From positions 1 to 30,769 of the IMG/VR virus record IMGVR_UViG_3300009373_000027: a stretch of DNA of 30,769 nucleotides; one strand, given 5' to 3'. This DNA comes from a virus. Under the pieces are notes generated by a model. That model saw only the letters and a program-made list of their open reading frames with translations, ran no database searches and was not told the origin of the DNA. Both the position numbers and the translations under genes were made by a program. Below, in pieces: positions 80 to 23,449 of this stretch; within the stretch, counting starts at the first letter, position 1, and every line of letters starts with the position of its first letter.

Positions 80-382
80 CTAAGGGTCAGTAATGCTGGT
101 CTTCTTGTATGAGTAAACGGCGCTTGATGACGCATCGCCTCCGCCGGATCCGCCGTCGGTGCCATATTCATCGATTAGGACTTTCTCTATCTCTCTGGCC
201 ACCGACGCAGACGAGGCGTACCTGTAAACGAACCAATGGCCCTTTTTCGGCACATTGTGGTCGCCAAACAGGCGCGAGTCCACATCAGACGTGATGCCCG
301 TATACCATGTGCCAAAGGGGCCACCCTCTTTTTTGATATGAGCGACGATCTCGTTAATGATGGTTTGCTTGGTTTTTGCCAT
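80..382 (-). CDS. Small GIY-YIG-like protein
   Basis: This 100-residue protein is the only convincing leftward gene. It begins with a helical stretch and then has a WYTGIT motif near residues 26-31, which resembles the GIY half of GIY-YIG nuclease folds. A conserved-looking C-terminal segment rich in Gly, Asp and Ser (TDGGSGGGDASS) is followed by a YSYKK motif. The start codon is preceded on the minus strand by a strong AGGAGGG ribosome binding site. It is divergent from the HTH gene that begins at 449. The fold assignment rests on the short motif and overall pattern; the family is short, and catalytic Arg and Glu residues cannot be assigned with certainty. It may be a degenerate nuclease-like domain rather than an active enzyme. 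Confidence 0.6.
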   Translation of the reverse strand: MAKTKQTIINEIVAHIKKEGGPFGTWYTGITSDVDSRLFGDHNVPKKGHWFVYRYASSASVAREIEKVLIDEYGTDGGSGGGDASSSAVYSYKKTSITDP

Positions 383-1428: not shown

Positions 1429-2241
1429 GTGCCAAAGGCGCCATCTTTTCAGTTTTACCCGGCAGACTGGCTAAAGGACCACAAGCTGAAAAGGTGTTCC
1501 TTCAAAGCCAAGGGGGTGTGGATCGATATCCTGTCAAACGCCTTTGAATGTCCCGAAAAAGGACTTCTAAGAGACGAAAACGGGCCGTATTCTCGACAAG
1601 AAATACTGGCAATGCTGACGGGAAGACAACGCGAAAAACGCGAGGGATTTAACGAGTTGGTGGAGAAGGGCGTCATAAAGCAGCTTGATGATAAAACGTA
1701 TTATTCCAAGAGGATGTACGAGCAATGGCGTCTATCAGAGATCCGCTCGAAGGCTGGATCTAAGGGGGGTAACCCCTCTCTTTTGCTTAAGCAAAATCCG
1801 AACAAAACAGACAAGCAAATCCTAACCCCTTCATCTTCTTCTTCATCTTCTAGTAATAGCTTATCTAAAGATAAGCAACCTCCGGTTGCCGCTTCCGACC
1901 ATTTCGAGACCAAGGTTGGCACTCATTTCGAGAACATCAAATCCCTCTGTGATTCTATCGAGTTGAAACCCAACAAGAACGGCCGTCCCTTCAATCCCTT
2001 CGAGTGGGTCCAGCAAAAAGCAAACCAGCGCGGGCACCCGGAAGCGATCGAGAAATGCCTGACCCGGATCGATAAGGAGTGGGACCTGATCAACTCCCCC
2101 TGGGGATACATCGAAAAAGTCTACACTGCCGAGAATCAGAACGCCAACGAGCGTGAGGCGATCGCAATCCACGAGAAGATGAAACAGCTGGAGCCTGAAG
2201 CCCTAAAGAAGCTCACTGCCGGCATCATGGAGTCGATATGA
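1429..2241 (+). CDS. Replication-organizer-like protein (DUF1376-type N-terminus)
   Basis: The protein has 270 residues and a GTG start at 1429, preceded by GGGGAG. The N-terminus reads FQFYPADWLKD, then a C-S-F-K-A-K-G-VW-I-D-I-L pattern typical of the DUF1376/YdaU winged-helix family found in phage replication proteins. These resemble DnaD- or primosome-type organizers that help load the helicase at the phage origin. A serine run (about eight Ser, near residues 135-142) forms a flexible linker to a C-terminal helical domain that includes a WVQQKANQRGHPEAIEKCL region. It overlaps the downstream nuclease gene by four bases (ATGA). The exact partner and origin are not visible. Confidence 0.65.
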   Translation: MPKAPSFQFYPADWLKDHKLKRCSFKAKGVWIDILSNAFECPEKGLLRDENGPYSRQEILAMLTGRQREKREGFNELVEKGVIKQLDDKTYYSKRMYEQWRLSEIRSKAGSKGGNPSLLLKQNPNKTDKQILTPSSSSSSSSNSLSKDKQPPVAASDHFETKVGTHFENIKSLCDSIELKPNKNGRPFNPFEWVQQKANQRGHPEAIEKCLTRIDKEWDLINSPWGYIEKVYTAENQNANEREAIAIHEKMKQLEPEALKKLTAGIMESI

Positions 2242-2546
2242 GGGCGAAACAGCAAACCGAAGCAGAGATAACCAGGGCAATCCGAGGATCCCTCAAGACC
2301 CTCGGCATCTTCCACTGGAAGCAATGGCAAGGTCCAATGAGCCAACCCAAAGGCATATCTGACATTATCGGGATTTTCAAAGGCAAGCCGTTGGCCATCG
2401 AAATTAAGACGGCCAGGGGAAAACTGAGCGAATACCAGCAAGCTTTTGCTGAAACCTGGAAGAGGGAAGGTGGCATCTTCATCGAGGCTCGTGGCGTCGA
2501 TGACGTGATCGACGGTCTGGGAATAAGAAGCAGGTTTCTATTCTAA
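2238..2546 (+). CDS. VRR-NUC family nuclease
   Basis: The protein has 102 residues and starts within the stop of the previous gene (ATGA), so the two are translationally coupled. It shows the core of the VRR-NUC domain: GISD at residues 39-42, then EIK at residues 55-57, and a following GKLSEYQQAF segment. In this PD-(D/E)XK-type family these Asp, Glu and Lys residues bind the metal and cut DNA. Phage-encoded single-domain members are thought to act as structure-specific nucleases or Holliday junction resolvases during replication and recombination. All expected core residues are present and the length is normal for the minimal domain. Confidence 0.85.
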   Translation: MRAKQQTEAEITRAIRGSLKTLGIFHWKQWQGPMSQPKGISDIIGIFKGKPLAIEIKTARGKLSEYQQAFAETWKREGGIFIEARGVDDVIDGLGIRSRFLF

Positions 2547-3483: not shown

Positions 3484-3701
3484 AATACGACATCACCCAC
3501 ACCCACTTCCGGGATATCTACGGACGGCTTCTATGGGTGGATCCGATCGAGCATGAATACCGGCTATACAGGATCGGAGAAACCTTCGATCTTGACGGCA
3601 TCAAATACGAGGTCAAGAGGATGGCCGTTGTCGACAACACACAGCATGTCAACGTTGCGGTCATCGAAGAGGATGTCAATATCGTAGAACCCCATCTTTG
3701 A
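3480..3701 (+). CDS. Small hypothetical protein
   Basis: The 73-residue protein starts in the stop codon of the membrane protein gene. It looks like a compact beta-rich domain, with alternating hydrophobic strands (LLWVD, YRLYRIGETFDLDGIKYEVKRMAVV, VNVAVIEEDVNIV). It has no signal peptide or membrane helix. I do not recognise the family. Its place in a chain of coupled tiny genes suggests an accessory function expressed with them. Confidence 0.5.
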   Translation: MKYDITHTHFRDIYGRLLWVDPIEHEYRLYRIGETFDLDGIKYEVKRMAVVDNTQHVNVAVIEEDVNIVEPHL

Positions 3702-3710
3702 GAGGCAACC

Positions 3711-3836
3711 ATGACAAGACGCAGACTGATTATCCTCCTGCTGCTGTATATGCTTCTTTTGCTGATAGCACCATTGCCGGACAACCTTGGTTTCATCCGG
3801 CCGGATCCGTTAGCGGACCTCGTCGTAAACTACTGA
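3711..3836 (+). CDS. Tiny single-pass membrane protein (41 residues)
   Basis: A 41-codon gene preceded by GAGAGG six bases upstream of ATG 3711. The protein starts MTRRRL, then has an uninterrupted hydrophobic run of Leu, Ile, Met and Tyr (about residues 6-22), then a short polar tail with NLGFIRPDPLADLV. It is probably an inner-membrane peptide with the N-terminus inside. It could be a lysis accessory or superinfection factor, but nothing proves this. It lies 13 bases before the exported protein gene at 3850. Confidence 0.45.
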   Translation: MTRRRLIILLLLYMLLLLIAPLPDNLGFIRPDPLADLVVNY

Positions 3837-3849
3837 AACAGGAGGGACC

Positions 3850-4161
3850 ATGAAGACAGTTACATTGTTCATCGCATTGTTGGCAGTATTGGCCGCGGCG
3901 CCGGCCGCAGCTCAAGAGGTCGAAGATAAGCCGGTAGACCGGCTGGTATACCTGCAGTTGAAACAGCAATCGATGCAGCAGGCATATCTGTATCACCAGG
4001 CGATGATGGAGTTATCCCGGATAAGCGCCGAAGAGCTGGCCGGCGAGATCAGGCGGCTCGGCATACAGAGGGCAGCAAAAAAGGCGGAGGAATCAAAAGA
4101 CGAGATAACCAATGCCATGGAGCAGCTGGAGGAGAAAAAGGATGGAAGGACCGATAATTAA
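3850..4161 (+). CDS. Exported helical protein with signal peptide
   Basis: The 103-residue protein has a strong AGGAGGG site before its ATG. It begins MKTVTLFIALLAVLAAAPAAAQ, a classical Sec signal peptide with a likely cleavage after AAA near residue 21. No lipobox Cys is present, so it is not a lipoprotein. The mature part is helical and charged, with many Gln, Glu and Lys residues. It probably acts in the periplasm or at the envelope. A spanin-like role was considered, but the features are not diagnostic. It overlaps the next gene by 20 bases. Confidence 0.6.
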   Translation: MKTVTLFIALLAVLAAAPAAAQEVEDKPVDRLVYLQLKQQSMQQAYLYHQAMMELSRISAEELAGEIRRLGIQRAAKKAEESKDEITNAMEQLEEKKDGRTDN

Positions 4162-4636
4162 GATTCAGCTTGAAGCACTACGCGAAAAGGTTGCGGCGGC
4201 GATGGTGGCGCGTTCGGAAGAATTCGACTCCATGATTGCCGCGGCCCTGGAGAAAGAGCTGACCGCTGAAAGCCTGCATTTCCGTGTAGAAGAAGAGGTC
4301 CGGAAAGCCGTCGATGAAGCAATCAAGTCCCTGAGCGAACACCACACGATCAGGTCTATAGTGACAGACATCGTGGCGGCATGCCTTAGAGACCACGAGA
4401 ACAGGATGGCCAGGATAGGCATAGGAGAGCCGATTGGCGAGGGACCCGAAGAGAAGGCAAGCCCATATGTCGTGACGTTCAGCAACGCTGCCGGCGATGT
4501 GGTTGGGCGGTTGGATTACGGCAACCGGGAAATGAAATTCGAGGGCAATGCCGAGGAGTCAGCCCGGCTGCTTTTTGATTACTTGTCAGAGTTGGCCGAA
4601 CAGGAAAGGAGGGAGAGCGATGCTGGACCGGGATAA
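4142..4636 (+). CDS. Hypothetical helical protein
   Basis: The protein has 164 residues from ATG 4142, which follows a GGAGGAG-rich region. A longer start at 4112 lacks a good site. The first 100 residues are charged and helical (LEALREKVAAAMVAR, EEVRKAVDEAIKSL). The last 60 form a beta-hairpin-like YVVTFSNAAGDVVGRLDYGN followed by a helix. I do not recognise the family. It overlaps the start of the Tas-like gene by 17 bases, so the two are likely co-expressed. Confidence 0.55.
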   Translation: MEGPIIKIQLEALREKVAAAMVARSEEFDSMIAAALEKELTAESLHFRVEEEVRKAVDEAIKSLSEHHTIRSIVTDIVAACLRDHENRMARIGIGEPIGEGPEEKASPYVVTFSNAAGDVVGRLDYGNREMKFEGNAEESARLLFDYLSELAEQERRESDAGPG

Positions 4637-5486
4637 ATTGAGGGCGATGGTTCGAGGGGCGTATGACATCCAAAAGCTGCGTATCCAGATGGGGAACAGG
4701 ATCGTCGTCAATTTCAAATCCAAACTGGGTATCGACATCAAAGAGAAAGAAGAAGCTGCCGACAAAGATAAGAAGAAGGTCATCAATGCTTTGCGTGTGG
4801 AGTACCGCAGGATCACAGACGGCGTAGCTTCTTTCCCTACCCCCAGGCGCTTTAAGGGAACTGAGATCATATCAGAGTATTCTGAGCTGGTTCTTTTGCG
4901 TCAATACATTTCCTTAGAGGAATCGGAGGCAAATCACTTTAGGGATATTGGCCATGTCTTAAAGTCCTTTCCGATCTATGCCGAAGTCCTTGAAAAAACC
5001 AAGGGCGTTGGCCCTGCTATGGCTGGCGTAATAATATCAGAGCTTGACCCCGCCAGGGCCGAATATCCGTCGAGTTTTTGGAAGTTTGCCGGCCTGGATG
5101 TTGCCGAGGACGGGAGAGGGCGCAGCCGCCGCAAGGAACACCTTGTCAAAGTAGAGTACATCAACAAGGACGGCGAAGAGGCAGAAAAGGATTCCATTAC
5201 CTTTAATCCGTTTCTGAAAACAAAACTGGTCGGTGTTTTGGGACCTTCTTTCTTGAGAGCAAAGAGCCCGTATTCTGATGTCTACTATCGATACCGGCAC
5301 CGGATAGACAACCACCCAAGTCACGAAGAGAAGACGCCAGGTCACCGGCACAACATGGCTACCAGGTACATGATAAAGCGCTTCCTGGTGGACCTTCACT
5401 GTAAATGGAGAGAACTTGAGGGCCTTCCGGTATCTGAGGAATACTCGGAGGCGAAGCTCGGCATGAAACACAATAGGGCAGGATAG
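4620..5486 (+). CDS. tas: Tas-like protein: stand-alone Nop/Transposase_20-type RNA-guided DNA-binding protein
   Basis: The protein has 288 residues from ATG 4620, behind an AAGGAGGGAG site; an upstream extension to 4548 is not needed. Residues 1-115 are helical, with a charged coiled-coil-like stretch near 40-66. Residues 128-161 read KGVGPAMAGVIISEL then YPSSFWKFAGLDV, the helix-hairpin-helix and 'ayaGl' pattern of the IS110 C-terminal (Transposase_20) domain, which is structurally related to the Nop domain of box C/D snoRNPs. The C-terminal part (SPYSDVYYRYRHR, then NMATRYMIKRFLVDLHCKW) matches the end of that domain. The IS110 RuvC-like DEDD half is missing and no HNH motif is seen. The gene stops 4 bases before a 36-nt repeat array, which is the arrangement of TIGR-Tas systems. 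It would therefore be a nuclease-less Tas that binds 36-nt guide RNAs and double-stranded DNA. The alternative is a decayed IS110 transposase, but no element ends are visible. Confidence 0.8.
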   Translation: MLDRDKLRAMVRGAYDIQKLRIQMGNRIVVNFKSKLGIDIKEKEEAADKDKKKVINALRVEYRRITDGVASFPTPRRFKGTEIISEYSELVLLRQYISLEESEANHFRDIGHVLKSFPIYAEVLEKTKGVGPAMAGVIISELDPARAEYPSSFWKFAGLDVAEDGRGRSRRKEHLVKVEYINKDGEEAEKDSITFNPFLKTKLVGVLGPSFLRAKSPYSDVYYRYRHRIDNHPSHEEKTPGHRHNMATRYMIKRFLVDLHCKWRELEGLPVSEEYSEAKLGMKHNRAG

Positions 5487-5489
5487 GAA

Positions 5490-5900
5490 AACGAGCCGTT
5501 CTATCCAAGAAAACCATGGTGCAATAGCGAGCCGCTCTATCCAAGAAAACCATGTTGGAATAGCGAGTCAGCAATGGGGAGCAAACCATCTGGCACAAGC
5601 GAGCCAATGATCCAGAGAAAACCAACCATGATGAGCGAGCCATCGCCACAATAGGAACCCAGAATTACTGAGCGAGCCAATGGACCAAAGAAGACCATTC
5701 AAGACGAGCGAGCCATGTAGAGGGAGTAGCCCATAAGCAAACAGCGAGCCAACGACGCCGAGCAAACCATGTGAAACAGGCGAGCCGTCAACCGGTAGCA
5801 AACCAAATGAAGAGAGCGAGCCAATTTCACCGAGAAGCCCAATCGATACGAGCGAGTCATGGCCACAGAAGTGTAGGAACCCAGAAGTGTTAGGCGAGCC
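5490..5900 (+). repeat. TIGR-like guide RNA array (11 dual-spacer units plus terminal repeat)
   Basis: Each unit is an 8-nt repeat (consensus AGCGAGCC), a 9-nt spacer A, a 10-nt repeat (consensus GAGMAAACCA) and a 9-nt spacer B, 36 nt in all. Units start at 5490, 5526, 5562, 5598, 5634, 5671, 5707, 5743, 5779, 5815 and 5851; a last 8-nt repeat is at 5893-5900. Nine units are exactly 36 nt; unit 5 is 37 and unit 11 is 42. Spacer pairs A/B: 1 GTTCTATCC/TGGTGCAAT; 2 GCTCTATCC/TGTTGGAAT; 3 AGCAATGGG/TCTGGCACA; 4 AATGATCCA/ACCATGATG; 5 ATCGCCACAA/GAATTACTG; 6 AATGGACCA/TTCAAGACG; 7 ATGTAGAGG/TAAGCAAAC; 8 AACGACGCC/TGTGAAACA; 9 GTCAACCGG/AATGAAGAG; 10 AATTTCACC/ATCGATACG; 11 ATGGCCACAGAAGTG/GAAGTGTTA. 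This matches the 36-nt, two-spacer guides of TIGR-Tas systems and lies directly behind the Tas-like gene. It is unlike CRISPR, which has longer repeats and spacers. Confidence 0.85.
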
Positions 5901-5906
5901 CAATCT

Positions 5907-6131
5907 ATGACCCCTGTAGAGTCCGCCATAGAAGGATGGGACCAGATAGCACAGATGTTCAACGTGTCGGTGAGGTCGGCTCAGCGCCGCAAGGAAGAGC
6001 TCGAACAAGCCGGCGCGATTTTCTACCGCTGGAAGAGCAGCAAGGGGAGGAAGGTACGCATTGTGTGTGCGTTCCCTTCCTCCCTTCGTACCTGGATGGC
6101 CGAAAAGGCGAAAAGAGGCGAAAGCTTCTAA
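5907..6131 (+). CDS. Small HTH DNA-binding protein
   Basis: The 74-residue protein starts six bases after the last repeat of the guide array. It has a clear helix-turn-helix at residues 10-36: GWDQIAQMFNVSVRSAQRRK followed by EELEQAG, then a wing-like IFYRW segment and a basic RKVRIV strand. This pattern is common in small phage regulators and in recombination directionality or packaging proteins. Its ribosome binding site would have to lie in the terminal repeat (AGG at 5892-5894, a long spacing), so translation may be weak or the array repeat may serve a double purpose. It could bind the iterons just downstream. Confidence 0.65.
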   Translation: MTPVESAIEGWDQIAQMFNVSVRSAQRRKEELEQAGAIFYRWKSSKGRKVRIVCAFPSSLRTWMAEKAKRGESF

Positions 6132-6142
6132 AAAGATGAAGT

Positions 6143-6210
6143 TGTCGTTCCCCATGTGTCGTTCCCTATATGTCACTCCCTATTGTCACTCCCTATGTGT
6201 CGTTTTGACA
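6143..6210 (+). repeat. Tandem 14-bp iterons upstream of terminase
   Basis: Four copies of a 13-14 bp repeat with consensus TGTCRYTCCCYATG lie head to tail at 6143, 6157, 6171 and 6184. A degenerate fifth copy at 6198-6210 reads TGTCGTTTTGACA, which is itself an inverted repeat (TGTC/GACA). The array starts 12 bases after the HTH gene and about 120 bases before the small terminase gene. It could be a binding site for the HTH protein or small terminase (packaging initiation), or origin iterons. Confidence 0.7.
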
Positions 6211-6264
6211 CCCTCCCCAATGTAGATCATCCTACTACTCATCGTGTAGTACCTCCTCAGTTGG

Positions 6265-6295
6265 TCCTGCCTGTGTATCAGGGGCCCAGGCAGGA
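6265..6295 (+). promoter_or_regulatory. Strong hairpin upstream of small terminase gene
   Basis: TCCTGCCTG (6265-6273) and CAGGCAGGA (6287-6295) form a perfect 9-bp stem with a 13-base loop, and pairing can extend a little further outward. No T-run follows, so it is not a standard terminator. A smaller inverted repeat (ACTAC/GTAGT) lies just upstream near 6233-6250. With the iterons at 6143-6210 they make the whole 6132-6331 gap structured; it may be part of a packaging site or an RNA regulatory leader. Confidence 0.55.
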
Positions 6296-6331
6296 TCCAG
6301 CCAACAGCAAAAAGCTCATCTTGGGGTAGAC

Positions 6332-6916
6332 ATGGCAAAGCCAGAAGAGCCCAAGAAACGCAAAGCAATAGACTGGGAAGCGATCGAGCGCGAATACCGT
6401 GCCGGCCAGCTATCTATCCGCGAAATTGCCCGCCAGCACCATATAACCGACGGTGCCATCAGGAAACGCGCCAAGCGTGATGGCTGGAAGCGGAACCTGG
6501 CGAAGAAGGTGCGCGAGGCAGTACGCGAAAGGATGGTACGCAGGGAGGTACGCACCCAGGACGCAAGCGATGAAGAGATAATCAACCACGTTGCAGAGAG
6601 AGCAGCCGATGTGTTAGTGCTGCATCGAGAAGACATCGCATCTCTCCGCGAGCTAGAAACCGCCCTCATCGAAGAGCTGAAAGACAATCCCACCAAACTA
6701 TATCTTGCCCAGTACAAGGGCAAAATCATCAAGAAGACAGTCGGCTTGACAGCATCCGAACGCGCAATGGCCGCCAACAATCTTGCCAACGTCCAGCATA
6801 AACGGATCCAGCTGGAGCGGCAGGCGTATAGCATCGATGGCAATCCGGAAGAAGAAGACATGGATGAGATCCCGATCACCTATGTTCCTGCGCCCGAGAG
6901 GAAGGATGACGAATGA
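6332..6916 (+). CDS. terS: Terminase small subunit
   Basis: The 194-residue protein has an N-terminal helix-turn-helix (residues 15-52: AIEREYRAGQLSIREIARQ, then a TDGAIRKRAKRDGW recognition helix), a long charged central helical region, and an acidic C-terminus. This is the usual layout of small terminases, in which the HTH binds the packaging site and the centre forms the oligomeric ring. It directly precedes and overlaps the large subunit gene by four bases. Both the pattern and the neighbour support the call strongly. The start has only a weak GGGG ribosome binding site. Confidence 0.85.
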   Translation: MAKPEEPKKRKAIDWEAIEREYRAGQLSIREIARQHHITDGAIRKRAKRDGWKRNLAKKVREAVRERMVRREVRTQDASDEEIINHVAERAADVLVLHREDIASLRELETALIEELKDNPTKLYLAQYKGKIIKKTVGLTASERAMAANNLANVQHKRIQLERQAYSIDGNPEEEDMDEIPITYVPAPERKDDE

Positions 6917-8226
6917 CGCCGGCAGCCCTGCCCGAAAAGCTCTCATTCCTCATAGGCAAGAAGGCCCGGTACAAGAGCATACGTGGCGGCAGGGGGTCTT
7001 CAAAATCGTGGAGTGTAGCTAGGGCCCTCCTTCTACTTGCGGTCAGCCGAAAACTCCGCATTCTCTGTGCCAGGGAAGTTCAGAACTCCATTAAGGAGTC
7101 GGTGCATCAGCTACTCTCAGACCAGATCCAGCATTTGGGCCTGGGCGCGAAATACCGCGTACTGGACCAGGAGATTAGAGGTAAGAACGGGAGCAAGTTT
7201 GTCTTCAGTGGGTTGGCCGACCAGACCGTCGAGTCCATCAAGTCGTTCGAGGGCGTTGATATCGCATGGATTGAAGAAGGGCAGGTCATATCTGATAGGT
7301 CCTGGAAGATCCTGATCCCCACAATTCGGAAAGAAGACAAAGAGAAAGAGACCGAATCTGAAATATGGGTAACCTGGAACCCGAGGCTTGACACGGATCC
7401 GACGTTTGTCCGGTTTGTGACACAACCGTTCCCGGGCACGATATCGGTCGAGATGAACTGGCGGGACAACCCATGGTTTCCGGAGGTTCTCAACAAAGAG
7501 CGGCTGCATGCAAAGGCGACCCTTCCCAAGACAGAGTATGACAACATTTGGGAGGGCAAGTGTCTCCCCGCAGTTGAAGGCGCCATCTTCCATGAAGAAA
7601 TGGAACAGATGAGGCGGGAGAAGAGAATCCGGAACGTGCCGTATGATCCCATGCTCAAGGCGCATGTGGTCTGGGATCTTGGGTTTAACGACGCAATGGC
7701 GATCGGCGTTGTGCAAAAGGTGGCATCCGAGGTCCGGATCATCAGGTACATCGAAGACTCTCACAGGACGCTGGCGGACTATTCCGTGGAGCTGAAAGAG
7801 CTAAGGTATAATTGGGGAAAGCTGTGGCTGCCGTTCTCCGACGGCTTCTCGAAAGACCACAAAACAGGGAAGGGATCCGATCAGATACTAAGGTCCCTGG
7901 GATGGAACGTAGCCAAAAAGGAGGAAGTGGCCAACACCGGCATTGAGACCGGCATCAAGTTGACCAGGATGGTCTTCCCCCGAATCTACGTTGATGAAAC
8001 GAATTGCGCTCGTCTTATCGAGTGCTGGAAGCAATACCGCCGGCACATCAACAAGCAGACAATGGAGGCCGGCGCACCACTACACGACGAGTACAGCCAT
8101 GGCGGCGACTTCACCCGCTATGTCGCAATAAACGTTGATAGCATGCGTAACGATATAGATCCGAGACCCATCCCAATGGGCCGGGTTGCCAGCTATCAAC
8201 CGCTTGATGCAGAGGTAGGCTATTAA
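6913..8226 (+). CDS. terL: Terminase large subunit (ATPase-nuclease)
   Basis: The 437-residue protein packages DNA into the procapsid. It has the Walker A motif GGRGSSKS at residues 25-32 and a Walker B-type IAWIEEG near residues 117-123, with the catalytic Glu following. The C-terminal nuclease domain shows VVWDLGFND with Asp255, a SDGF near 311 and HDEYSHGGDF with Asp392 and Asp399, the metal-binding acidic residues of the RNase H-like fold. The length is typical for the Terminase_3/PBSX-like group. It starts in the stop of terS (ATGA) and its stop overlaps the portal start (TAATG). Confidence 0.95.
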   Translation: MTPAALPEKLSFLIGKKARYKSIRGGRGSSKSWSVARALLLLAVSRKLRILCAREVQNSIKESVHQLLSDQIQHLGLGAKYRVLDQEIRGKNGSKFVFSGLADQTVESIKSFEGVDIAWIEEGQVISDRSWKILIPTIRKEDKEKETESEIWVTWNPRLDTDPTFVRFVTQPFPGTISVEMNWRDNPWFPEVLNKERLHAKATLPKTEYDNIWEGKCLPAVEGAIFHEEMEQMRREKRIRNVPYDPMLKAHVVWDLGFNDAMAIGVVQKVASEVRIIRYIEDSHRTLADYSVELKELRYNWGKLWLPFSDGFSKDHKTGKGSDQILRSLGWNVAKKEEVANTGIETGIKLTRMVFPRIYVDETNCARLIECWKQYRRHINKQTMEAGAPLHDEYSHGGDFTRYVAINVDSMRNDIDPRPIPMGRVASYQPLDAEVGY

Positions 8227-22990: not shown

Positions 22991-23449
22991 ATGGTACATC
23001 AGACACACGACATAAACGCGGTCAACCGCATACTGAACCATCCGAAGGTTTACGACCGTATAAGCGACGATTCATCCCCCAGGCCGTACTATGCGCCGCC
23101 TGAAGGCGTTTATATAATGGACGATAGGCGGTCGGGGGTAATCGCCCTGCAGCAGCTAAACGGTATAGCCTGCCAGGTCCACATTGCCGCTCTTCCAAGT
23201 ATGTGGGGCCGTGCCAGGGCTTTTGTAAAGCAGGCCCTATGTTGGGGATTCATGAACACGCAGTATATCAAAGTGGTTGCCCTGGTCCCGGATTTCAACC
23301 TTCCGGCGACAAGGCTATGCCACGATTGCGGGTTCACGATCGAGGGCGTTCTAACAAAGTCTTTTCTGAAGGACTGGAAGATGCACAATCAGACAATTTA
23401 CGGCATTACAAGCGCTGAATTCTACAGTCAGCGGAGAGGAAGGGCATAA
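22991..23449 (+). CDS. GNAT-like protein (DUF2824, P22 gp14-like)
   Basis: The 152-residue protein is a small acyltransferase-like fold: an N-terminal INAVNRILNHPKVYDRI, then a strand pair (GVIALQQLNG, ACQVHIAALPSMWGRARAFVKQAL), and a VVALVPDFNLPATRLCHDCGFTIEGV stretch typical of GNAT cores. This matches the DUF2824 family that includes P22 gp14, which sits beside the ejection genes. The conserved GNAT core pattern is visible, but acetyl-CoA binding was not proven. It starts directly after the previous stop. It may modify an ejection protein or help assembly. Confidence 0.7.
   Translation: MVHQTHDINAVNRILNHPKVYDRISDDSSPRPYYAPPEGVYIMDDRRSGVIALQQLNGIACQVHIAALPSMWGRARAFVKQALCWGFMNTQYIKVVALVPDFNLPATRLCHDCGFTIEGVLTKSFLKDWKMHNQTIYGITSAEFYSQRRGRA

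What the first reader, a model, noticed from the sequence alone, without database searches (positions are those of the whole stretch)
4620..5900. Phage-borne TIGR-Tas-type system: nuclease-less Nop-domain protein with a 36-nt dual-spacer array
Seen directly: eleven units behind the gene at 4620, with two alternating short repeats (AGCGAGCC and GAGMAAACCA) and two 9-nt spacers per unit; nine units are exactly 36 nt. The protein has the IS110 C-terminal (Transposase_20) pattern without the RuvC half. From my knowledge of TIGR-Tas systems, guides are 36 nt with two spacers and Tas proteins carry a Nop domain related to this IS110 domain. Inference: this is a TasA-like stand-alone version, probably binding double-stranded DNA without cutting it, for repression of competitor or host genes.
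Basis: partly seen in the sequence, partly recalled or inferred. Interest (0 to 1): 0.95.

Follow-up and report, generated by a model that had tools for sequence, protein, structure and literature searches.

The report
Phage TIGR-TasA guide-RNA array
A bacterial virus carries a small RNA-guided DNA-binding protein, with no cutting domain, next to an array of eleven short paired guides; it is a new example of the TIGR-Tas systems described in 2025, and comparison with about 190 related arrays shows how such arrays change over time.

Summary
Window 4620-5486 encodes a 288-aa Nop-domain protein without a nuclease. It is followed at 5490-5900 by a dual-repeat array of eleven units: edge (R)AGCGAGCCA, spacer A, loop (R)AGNAAACCA, spacer B. 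Nine units are exactly 36 nt, one is 37, and the last is irregular (42). A profile of the protein and its relatives matches the solved TasR (4.9e-40) and TasH (4.1e-29). The AlphaFold model aligns with both (Z 20-21) and starts where their nuclease domains end. A DNA pattern made only from the repeats pulled out about 190 viral loci, of which 139 encode a homologue, nearly all nuclease-less. A Microcystis phage (28% protein identity) has the same arrangement. This is TIGR-TasA: a new member of a known kind. Its targets are unknown: no self-targets in 26 phage contigs, no excess in 2.8 Mb of TIGR-phage DNA, none for guides 1-2 in IMG/VR. What may be new: arrays hold far more near-duplicate and half-identical units than chance (49 vs 1; 67 vs 9), so they probably grow by internal duplication and half-unit exchange. 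Silencing of a rival element or host gene is inferred, not shown.

The parts
4620..5486 (+). tasA: 288-aa solo Nop-domain protein, stop included; Pfam Transposase_20 over residues 122-175, PHROG 4285 over the full length
5490..5900 (+). TIGR dual-repeat array, eleven units (nine of 36 nt, one of 37, one irregular of 42), ending in edge repeat 5893-5900
5490..5561 (+). units 1 and 2, a near-duplicate guide pair: TTCTATCCA/TGGTGCAAT and CTCTATCCA/TGTTGGAAT (3 of 18 guide bases differ)
5634..5670 (+). unit 5, 37 nt, 10-nt spacer A, rare loop variant AGGAACCCA shared with unit 11
5851..5892 (+). unit 11, irregular: 15-nt spacer A, CAGAAGTGT present twice, same loop variant as unit 5
5907..6131 (+). 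small ORF starting directly after the array; weak sub-threshold HTH matches only; no terminator-like site found between it and the array
6332..6916 (+). terminase small subunit
   Evidence: phrog_1206, 1.6e-40
6913..8226 (+). terminase large subunit: start of the packaging module downstream of tasA-TIGR
   Evidence: phrog_3717, 2.5e-60

Best explanation
It is a phage-borne TIGR-TasA system. The array, directly behind tasA on the same strand, is probably transcribed with it. TasA dimerises through its coiled coil and holds the tandem guide RNA by the box C/D-like ends of the edge and loop repeats; a host RNase cuts within the edge repeats, giving guides of about 36 nt. The two short spacers pair with opposite strands of an adjacent target of about 16-18 bp, which is unwound and bent. 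TasA has no nuclease, so it would act by staying bound, most likely blocking transcription or replication of DNA outside its own phage (a rival element or the host). Shown here: protein family, fold, missing nuclease, array architecture, conserved association, no detectable self-targets. Known from the founding paper for relatives: 36-nt guides (TasA, TasR, TasH) and tandem two-strand targeting (TasR, TasH). Inferred: co-transcription, target identity and silencing.
For: Profile A2 against PDB: TasR 9mty 4.9e-40 (from its residue 114 on), TasH 4.1e-29, IS621 only 0.0086. Model pLDDT 90, pTM 0.84. The eleven best Foldseek matches are all TasH or TasR; Z 21.1 with TasH from residue 65, 20.2 with TasR from residue 111 (1.7 A over 195), about 14.9 with IS110-family recombinases, about 7 with Nop5. 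139 of 190 loci, nearly all fetched by repeat DNA alone, encode a homologue, nearly all 215-340 aa. Microcystis phage PP438412 has tasA plus a 36-nt array with edge TGCGAGCC and loop CGAAACCC. Edge-loop covariation across 131 arrays, r=0.90. Targeting and processing rules: PMC12045711.
Against: No target was found. No RNA data exist for this locus. No terminator-like site follows the array, whereas published arrays usually have one. The last unit is irregular, so part of the array may be decaying. The founding paper saw no block of conjugation or phage infection with TasR in E. coli and called the function of TasA unclear.
Confidence: 0.85

Rival explanations
1. A remnant or relative of an IS110-type RNA-guided transposase that has lost its DEDD half, with the array as a decayed bridge-RNA region.
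For: Pfam names the domain Transposase_20, PHROG 4285 is labelled transposase, and IS621 and ISCro4 share the fold at Z about 14.9.
Against: TasR and TasH fit far better by sequence and structure. A regular 36-nt array is conserved next to the gene across 139 loci; IS110 has one bridge RNA, not an array. No DEDD domain is present.
Confidence: 0.03
2. The guides act on RNA rather than DNA, as box C/D RNPs or antisense RNAs do, each spacer pairing alone with a transcript.
For: The fold is shared with Nop5 (Z about 7). TasA has no nuclease, and the paper read here reports no TasA target.
Against: TasR and TasH use tandem DNA targeting through the same Nop-tigRNA core, and TasR did not act on RNA.
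Confidence: 0.12
3. TasA-tigRNA regulates, bends or helps package the phage's own DNA; the position next to terminase reflects that role.
For: tasA-TIGR lies just upstream of terminase here and in PP438412; terminase families are the most frequent large neighbours downstream. The founding paper suggests an aid to integrases.
Against: No self-target excess in 26 contigs: 4 hits at one mismatch or less against 2, 2 and 2 in controls. Many loci lie next to replication genes instead.
Confidence: 0.08
4. Same TIGR-TasA machine, but the guides target host genes rather than rival elements (a sub-case of the best explanation).
For: No excess of targets in TIGR-phage DNA nor, for guides 1-2, in viral contigs (54 hits versus 87 for the flipped control).
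Against: Hosts are unknown, so this was not tested directly; sensitivity is low for 16-18-nt targets in large collections.
Confidence: 0.35

Closest known systems
TIGR-TasA with dual-repeat array (Faure et al. 2025, PMC12045711; e.g. Flavonifractor plautii FpTIGR)
   Same: Solo Nop-domain protein, array directly beside the gene, edge/spacer A/loop/spacer B, 36-nt period, box C/D-like repeat ends, phage setting
   Different: Box D here is (R)AG instead of the UG of TasR arrays; no terminator-like site after the array; the last unit is irregular
TIGR-TasR (PDB 9mty)
   Same: Nop core and coiled coil: Z 20.2, 1.7 A over 195 residues; same repeat logic
   Different: No RuvC domain: alignment starts at TasR residue 111
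TIGR-TasH (PDB 9vzx, 9w04, 21kl)
   Same: Nop core, Z 21.1
   Different: No HNH domain: alignment starts at TasH residue 65
TIGR-TasA of Microcystis phage Mvi-JY20 (PP438412, annotated hypothetical protein)
   Same: tasA, array and terminase in the same order
   Different: 28% protein identity; edge TGCGAGCC and loop CGAAACCC; array ends in a terminator-like hairpin
IS110-family RNA-guided recombinases (IS621, ISCro4)
   Same: RNA-binding fold, Z about 14.9
   Different: No DEDD recombinase half, no bridge RNA

Membership tests
TIGR-Tas (TasA) | Nop domain of the Tas family | tested here: met
TIGR-Tas (TasA) | no nuclease domain (TasA rather than TasR or TasH) | tested here: met
   alignments begin at TasR residue 111 and TasH residue 65; 288 aa; no nuclease family in Pfam or PHROGs
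TIGR-Tas (TasA) | adjacent array of two alternating 8-12-nt repeats separated by spacers of about 9 nt, about 36-nt period | tested here: met
TIGR-Tas (TasA) | box C/D-like repeat ends shared by edge and loop and covarying between them | tested here: met
   both repeats run AG...CCA here; r=0.90 and 0.77 across 131 arrays
TIGR-Tas (TasA) | repeats and Tas gene associated in independent genomes | tested here: met
   139 of 190 loci; PP438412
TIGR-Tas (TasA) | array processed into 36-nt tigRNAs bound by the protein | not testable with these tools
   needs small-RNA sequencing
TIGR-Tas (TasA) | tandem-spacer recognition of both strands of double-stranded DNA | not testable with these tools
   no target found; absence is not a test
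TIGR-Tas (TasA) | rho-independent terminator after the array (typical in the paper, not defining) | tested here: inconclusive
   none on the plus strand in 3700-6950, but the scan is a simple consensus and the array runs straight into the next gene
IS110 transposase | N-terminal DEDD (RuvC-like) recombinase domain | tested here: not met
CRISPR array | single 25-36-nt repeat alternating with longer spacers | tested here: not met
   repeats of 8-10 nt in two alternating types
box C/D snoRNP (Nop5) | Nop5 with fibrillarin and L7Ae, kink-turn RNAs | tested here: inconclusive
   Nop5 fold similarity Z about 7; partners and kink-turns not searched for

The most novel reading that the evidence does not exclude
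TIGR arrays of phage TasA systems grow by internal duplication, drift and exchange of half-units rather than by capture of foreign DNA alone, so that guides follow variants of sequences in other replicons, and the phage uses them as a nuclease-free, many-guide silencer.
Probability: 0.3. Interest if true: 0.65.

Novelty: new member of a known kind. Interest (0 to 1): 0.42.

Why it matters
It adds a clear phage TasA with a full array to a family described in 2025 whose function, targets and way of acquiring spacers are open. The repeat pattern used here (GCGAGCCA-N9-AGNNNNCCA-N9-AGCGAGCC) recovers many such loci in viral metagenomes without a protein search. The set shows that arrays carry an excess of near-duplicate and half-identical units, which makes the open question of array growth testable. 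It also gives evidence against self-targeting in phage TIGR systems.

Tried and rejected
Close-relative search with the protein alone found nothing in viral contigs; the DNA pattern of the repeats did. Self-target search in 26 contigs: no excess. Cross-target search of 1689 spacer pairs in 2.8 Mb: no excess at the permitted gaps over flipped and mispaired controls; an earlier hint at central gaps of 2-3 was not reproduced. Codon-phase idea: variants of one guide in related arrays differ at positions 3, 6, 9, 12, 15 and 18 (QVLRI), and congruence of differences between loci gave P 0.005-0.06 but no synonymy signal, and none within loci. A scan for that putative target found only hits in other frames. 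The window's own units 1 and 2 differ at 1, 13 and 16, probably by chance. Palindromic targets: no excess with a within-array control. Guides 1-2 against viral contigs: 54 hits versus 87 for the flipped control. The genome-contig scan includes 9-nt minisatellites that mimic the pattern (L272, L277, L316, L325), so it was not used for counts. Rfam: no match. No tRNA. The plasmid collection has no relative. The published list of TIGR loci (table S1) was not available, so I cannot say whether this locus is already listed there.

Full report
WHAT IS THERE. The window is a 30,769-base virus record of a tailed phage. Terminase, head and tail genes run on the plus strand. Upstream of the terminase genes, at 4620-5486, lies a gene for a 288-residue protein. 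Directly after its stop codon an array begins at 5490 and ends with the edge repeat at 5893-5900. Each unit is edge repeat AGCGAGCCA, spacer A, loop repeat AGNAAACCA, spacer B. There are eleven units: nine of exactly 36 nt, one of 37 (5634) and an irregular last one of 42 (5851). A chain of ten edge motifs at 35-37 nt spacing has no match in 300 random sequences of the same length and dinucleotide make-up, where the longest chain is 1 or 2. The plus strand of the array has stops in every frame. The minus-strand ORFs across it follow from the period being a multiple of three.

THE PROTEIN IS A TAS PROTEIN WITHOUT A NUCLEASE. Pfam finds Transposase_20 (6.6e-5) and PHROGs finds family 4285 over the full length (3.5e-36). 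A profile of 46 relatives hits TasR 9mty at 4.9e-40 and TasH at 4.1e-29; IS621 is far behind at 0.0086. AlphaFold gives pLDDT 90 and pTM 0.84. The first eleven Foldseek matches in the PDB are TasH and TasR chains. By structural alignment Z is 21.1 with TasH, 20.2 with TasR (1.7 A over 195 residues), about 14.9 with IS110-family recombinases and about 7 with Nop5. The alignments begin at TasR residue 111 and TasH residue 65, so the RuvC and HNH parts are missing. This is the TasA type.

THE ARRAY AND THE PROTEIN GO TOGETHER ELSEWHERE. Of 190 loci (nearly all fetched this way; L002 and L003 came from protein searches), 139 encode a homologue of the window protein, nearly all 215-340 residues long; the closest are 61% identical. 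Some of the remainder are fragments that end close to the array. Microcystis phage Mvi-JY20 (PP438412), reached by protein search, has a 28% identical protein followed by its own 36-nt array with edge TGCGAGCC and loop CGAAACCC, a terminator-like hairpin and a terminase gene. Across 131 arrays the base before box D is a purine typical of the array and agrees between edge and loop (r=0.90); the last base of the two repeats also covaries (r=0.77). This matches the published remark that box motifs covary between edge and loop because one symmetric dimer binds both. It also means the freely variable guide is nearer 8+8 than 9+9.

HOW IT MOST LIKELY WORKS. From the founding paper (PMC12045711): Tas proteins bind tigRNAs of 36 nt cut out of the array. 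For TasR and TasH, spacers A and B pair with opposite strands of adjacent DNA, gaps of 1-2 bp being tolerated for TasR. From the reported 8-nt 3' overhangs I derived that one target strand reads spacer A followed by the reverse complement of spacer B. With no nuclease, this TasA can bind and bend DNA but has no known means to cut it. Interference with transcription or replication of a rival element or the host is the likeliest use; this last step is inference.

TARGETS. I tested targets with orientation-flipped and mispaired controls. In 26 phage contigs with about 590 units, spacer pairs have 4 self-hits at one mismatch or less, against 2, 2 and 2 in controls, so widespread self-targeting is not supported. 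In 2.8 Mb of TIGR-phage DNA, 1689 pairs show no excess. The most redundant guide of the window (units 1 and 2) has 54 hits in viral contigs in the predicted orientation and 87 in the flipped one. Targets may lie in hosts, or in elements absent from these sets. Variants of the same guide in related arrays differ at codon-congruent positions slightly more than chance (P 0.005-0.06), with one striking case (positions 3, 6, 9, 12, 15, 18), but there is no synonymy signal and a target scan failed. I treat this as unproven.

HOW ARRAYS CHANGE. Among 158 non-redundant viral arrays (14,263 within-array pairs of units), 49 pairs differ at four or fewer of 16 guide bases, against 1 in a control with reversed spacers. 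A further 67 pairs share one spacer and differ in the other, against 9. In a related count near-duplicates are about three times more frequent among adjacent units than among units ten or more apart (14/1372 against 22/6530). The window shows this itself: units 1 and 2 are near-duplicates, and units 5 and 11 share a rare loop and part of spacer A. The simplest reading is growth by internal duplication followed by drift and half-unit exchange. Selection for guides against variants of one target could give part of the same pattern. The founding paper calls array growth an enigma; I did not find this observation in the papers searched, but the library is incomplete.

VERDICT. The observation and the classification are correct. 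It is a new member of a known kind, TIGR-TasA with a dual-repeat array. Function, targets and processing of this locus are untested.

Noticed in passing
L004-L190, viral loci: TIGR arrays contain many near-duplicate and half-identical units, enriched at short distance: a sign of internal duplication and half-unit exchange.
   Followed up: partly
L009 unit at 2683, L015 unit at 2230, L094 unit at 53 (array strand): Three variants of one guide differ only at positions 3, 6, 9, 12, 15 and 18 of the 18-base target, as codon wobble would give (QVLRI).
   Followed up: partly
L002 3734-4800 (PP438412.1, Microcystis phage Mvi-JY20): Unannotated TIGR-TasA with a 36-nt array and terminator in a sequenced phage with a known host: a good model for finding targets.
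   Followed up: partly
window 80-382, minus strand: Possible GIY-YIG nuclease-like ORF at the left end (Pfam E 0.0038, below cut-off).
   Followed up: no
window 2238-2546: Small endonuclease or Holliday-junction-resolvase-like protein (phrog_93, phrog_5702).
   Followed up: no
window 22991-23449: GNAT-like protein in the structural region (phrog_651 head morphogenesis, phrog_4470).
   Followed up: no
L044 6460-7785 and L111 761-2095, minus strand: TasA homologues of about 440 residues with extra sequence of unknown function; Pfam finds only Transposase_20 in them.
   Followed up: partly
L272, L277, L316, L325 (genome contigs): Nine-base minisatellites in bacterial chromosomes imitate the TIGR repeat pattern and are false positives of the DNA scan.
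   Followed up: partly
L280, L304, L305, L313, L314, L319: Same repeat pattern in archaeal MAGs (Altiarchaeales, Aenigmatarchaeota, Hadarchaeum, Thaumarchaeota, Bathyarchaeota), some with many units.
   Followed up: no
viral loci in alignment A4: ParB-like genes lie near a few phage TasA loci, as the founding paper also noted.
   Followed up: no
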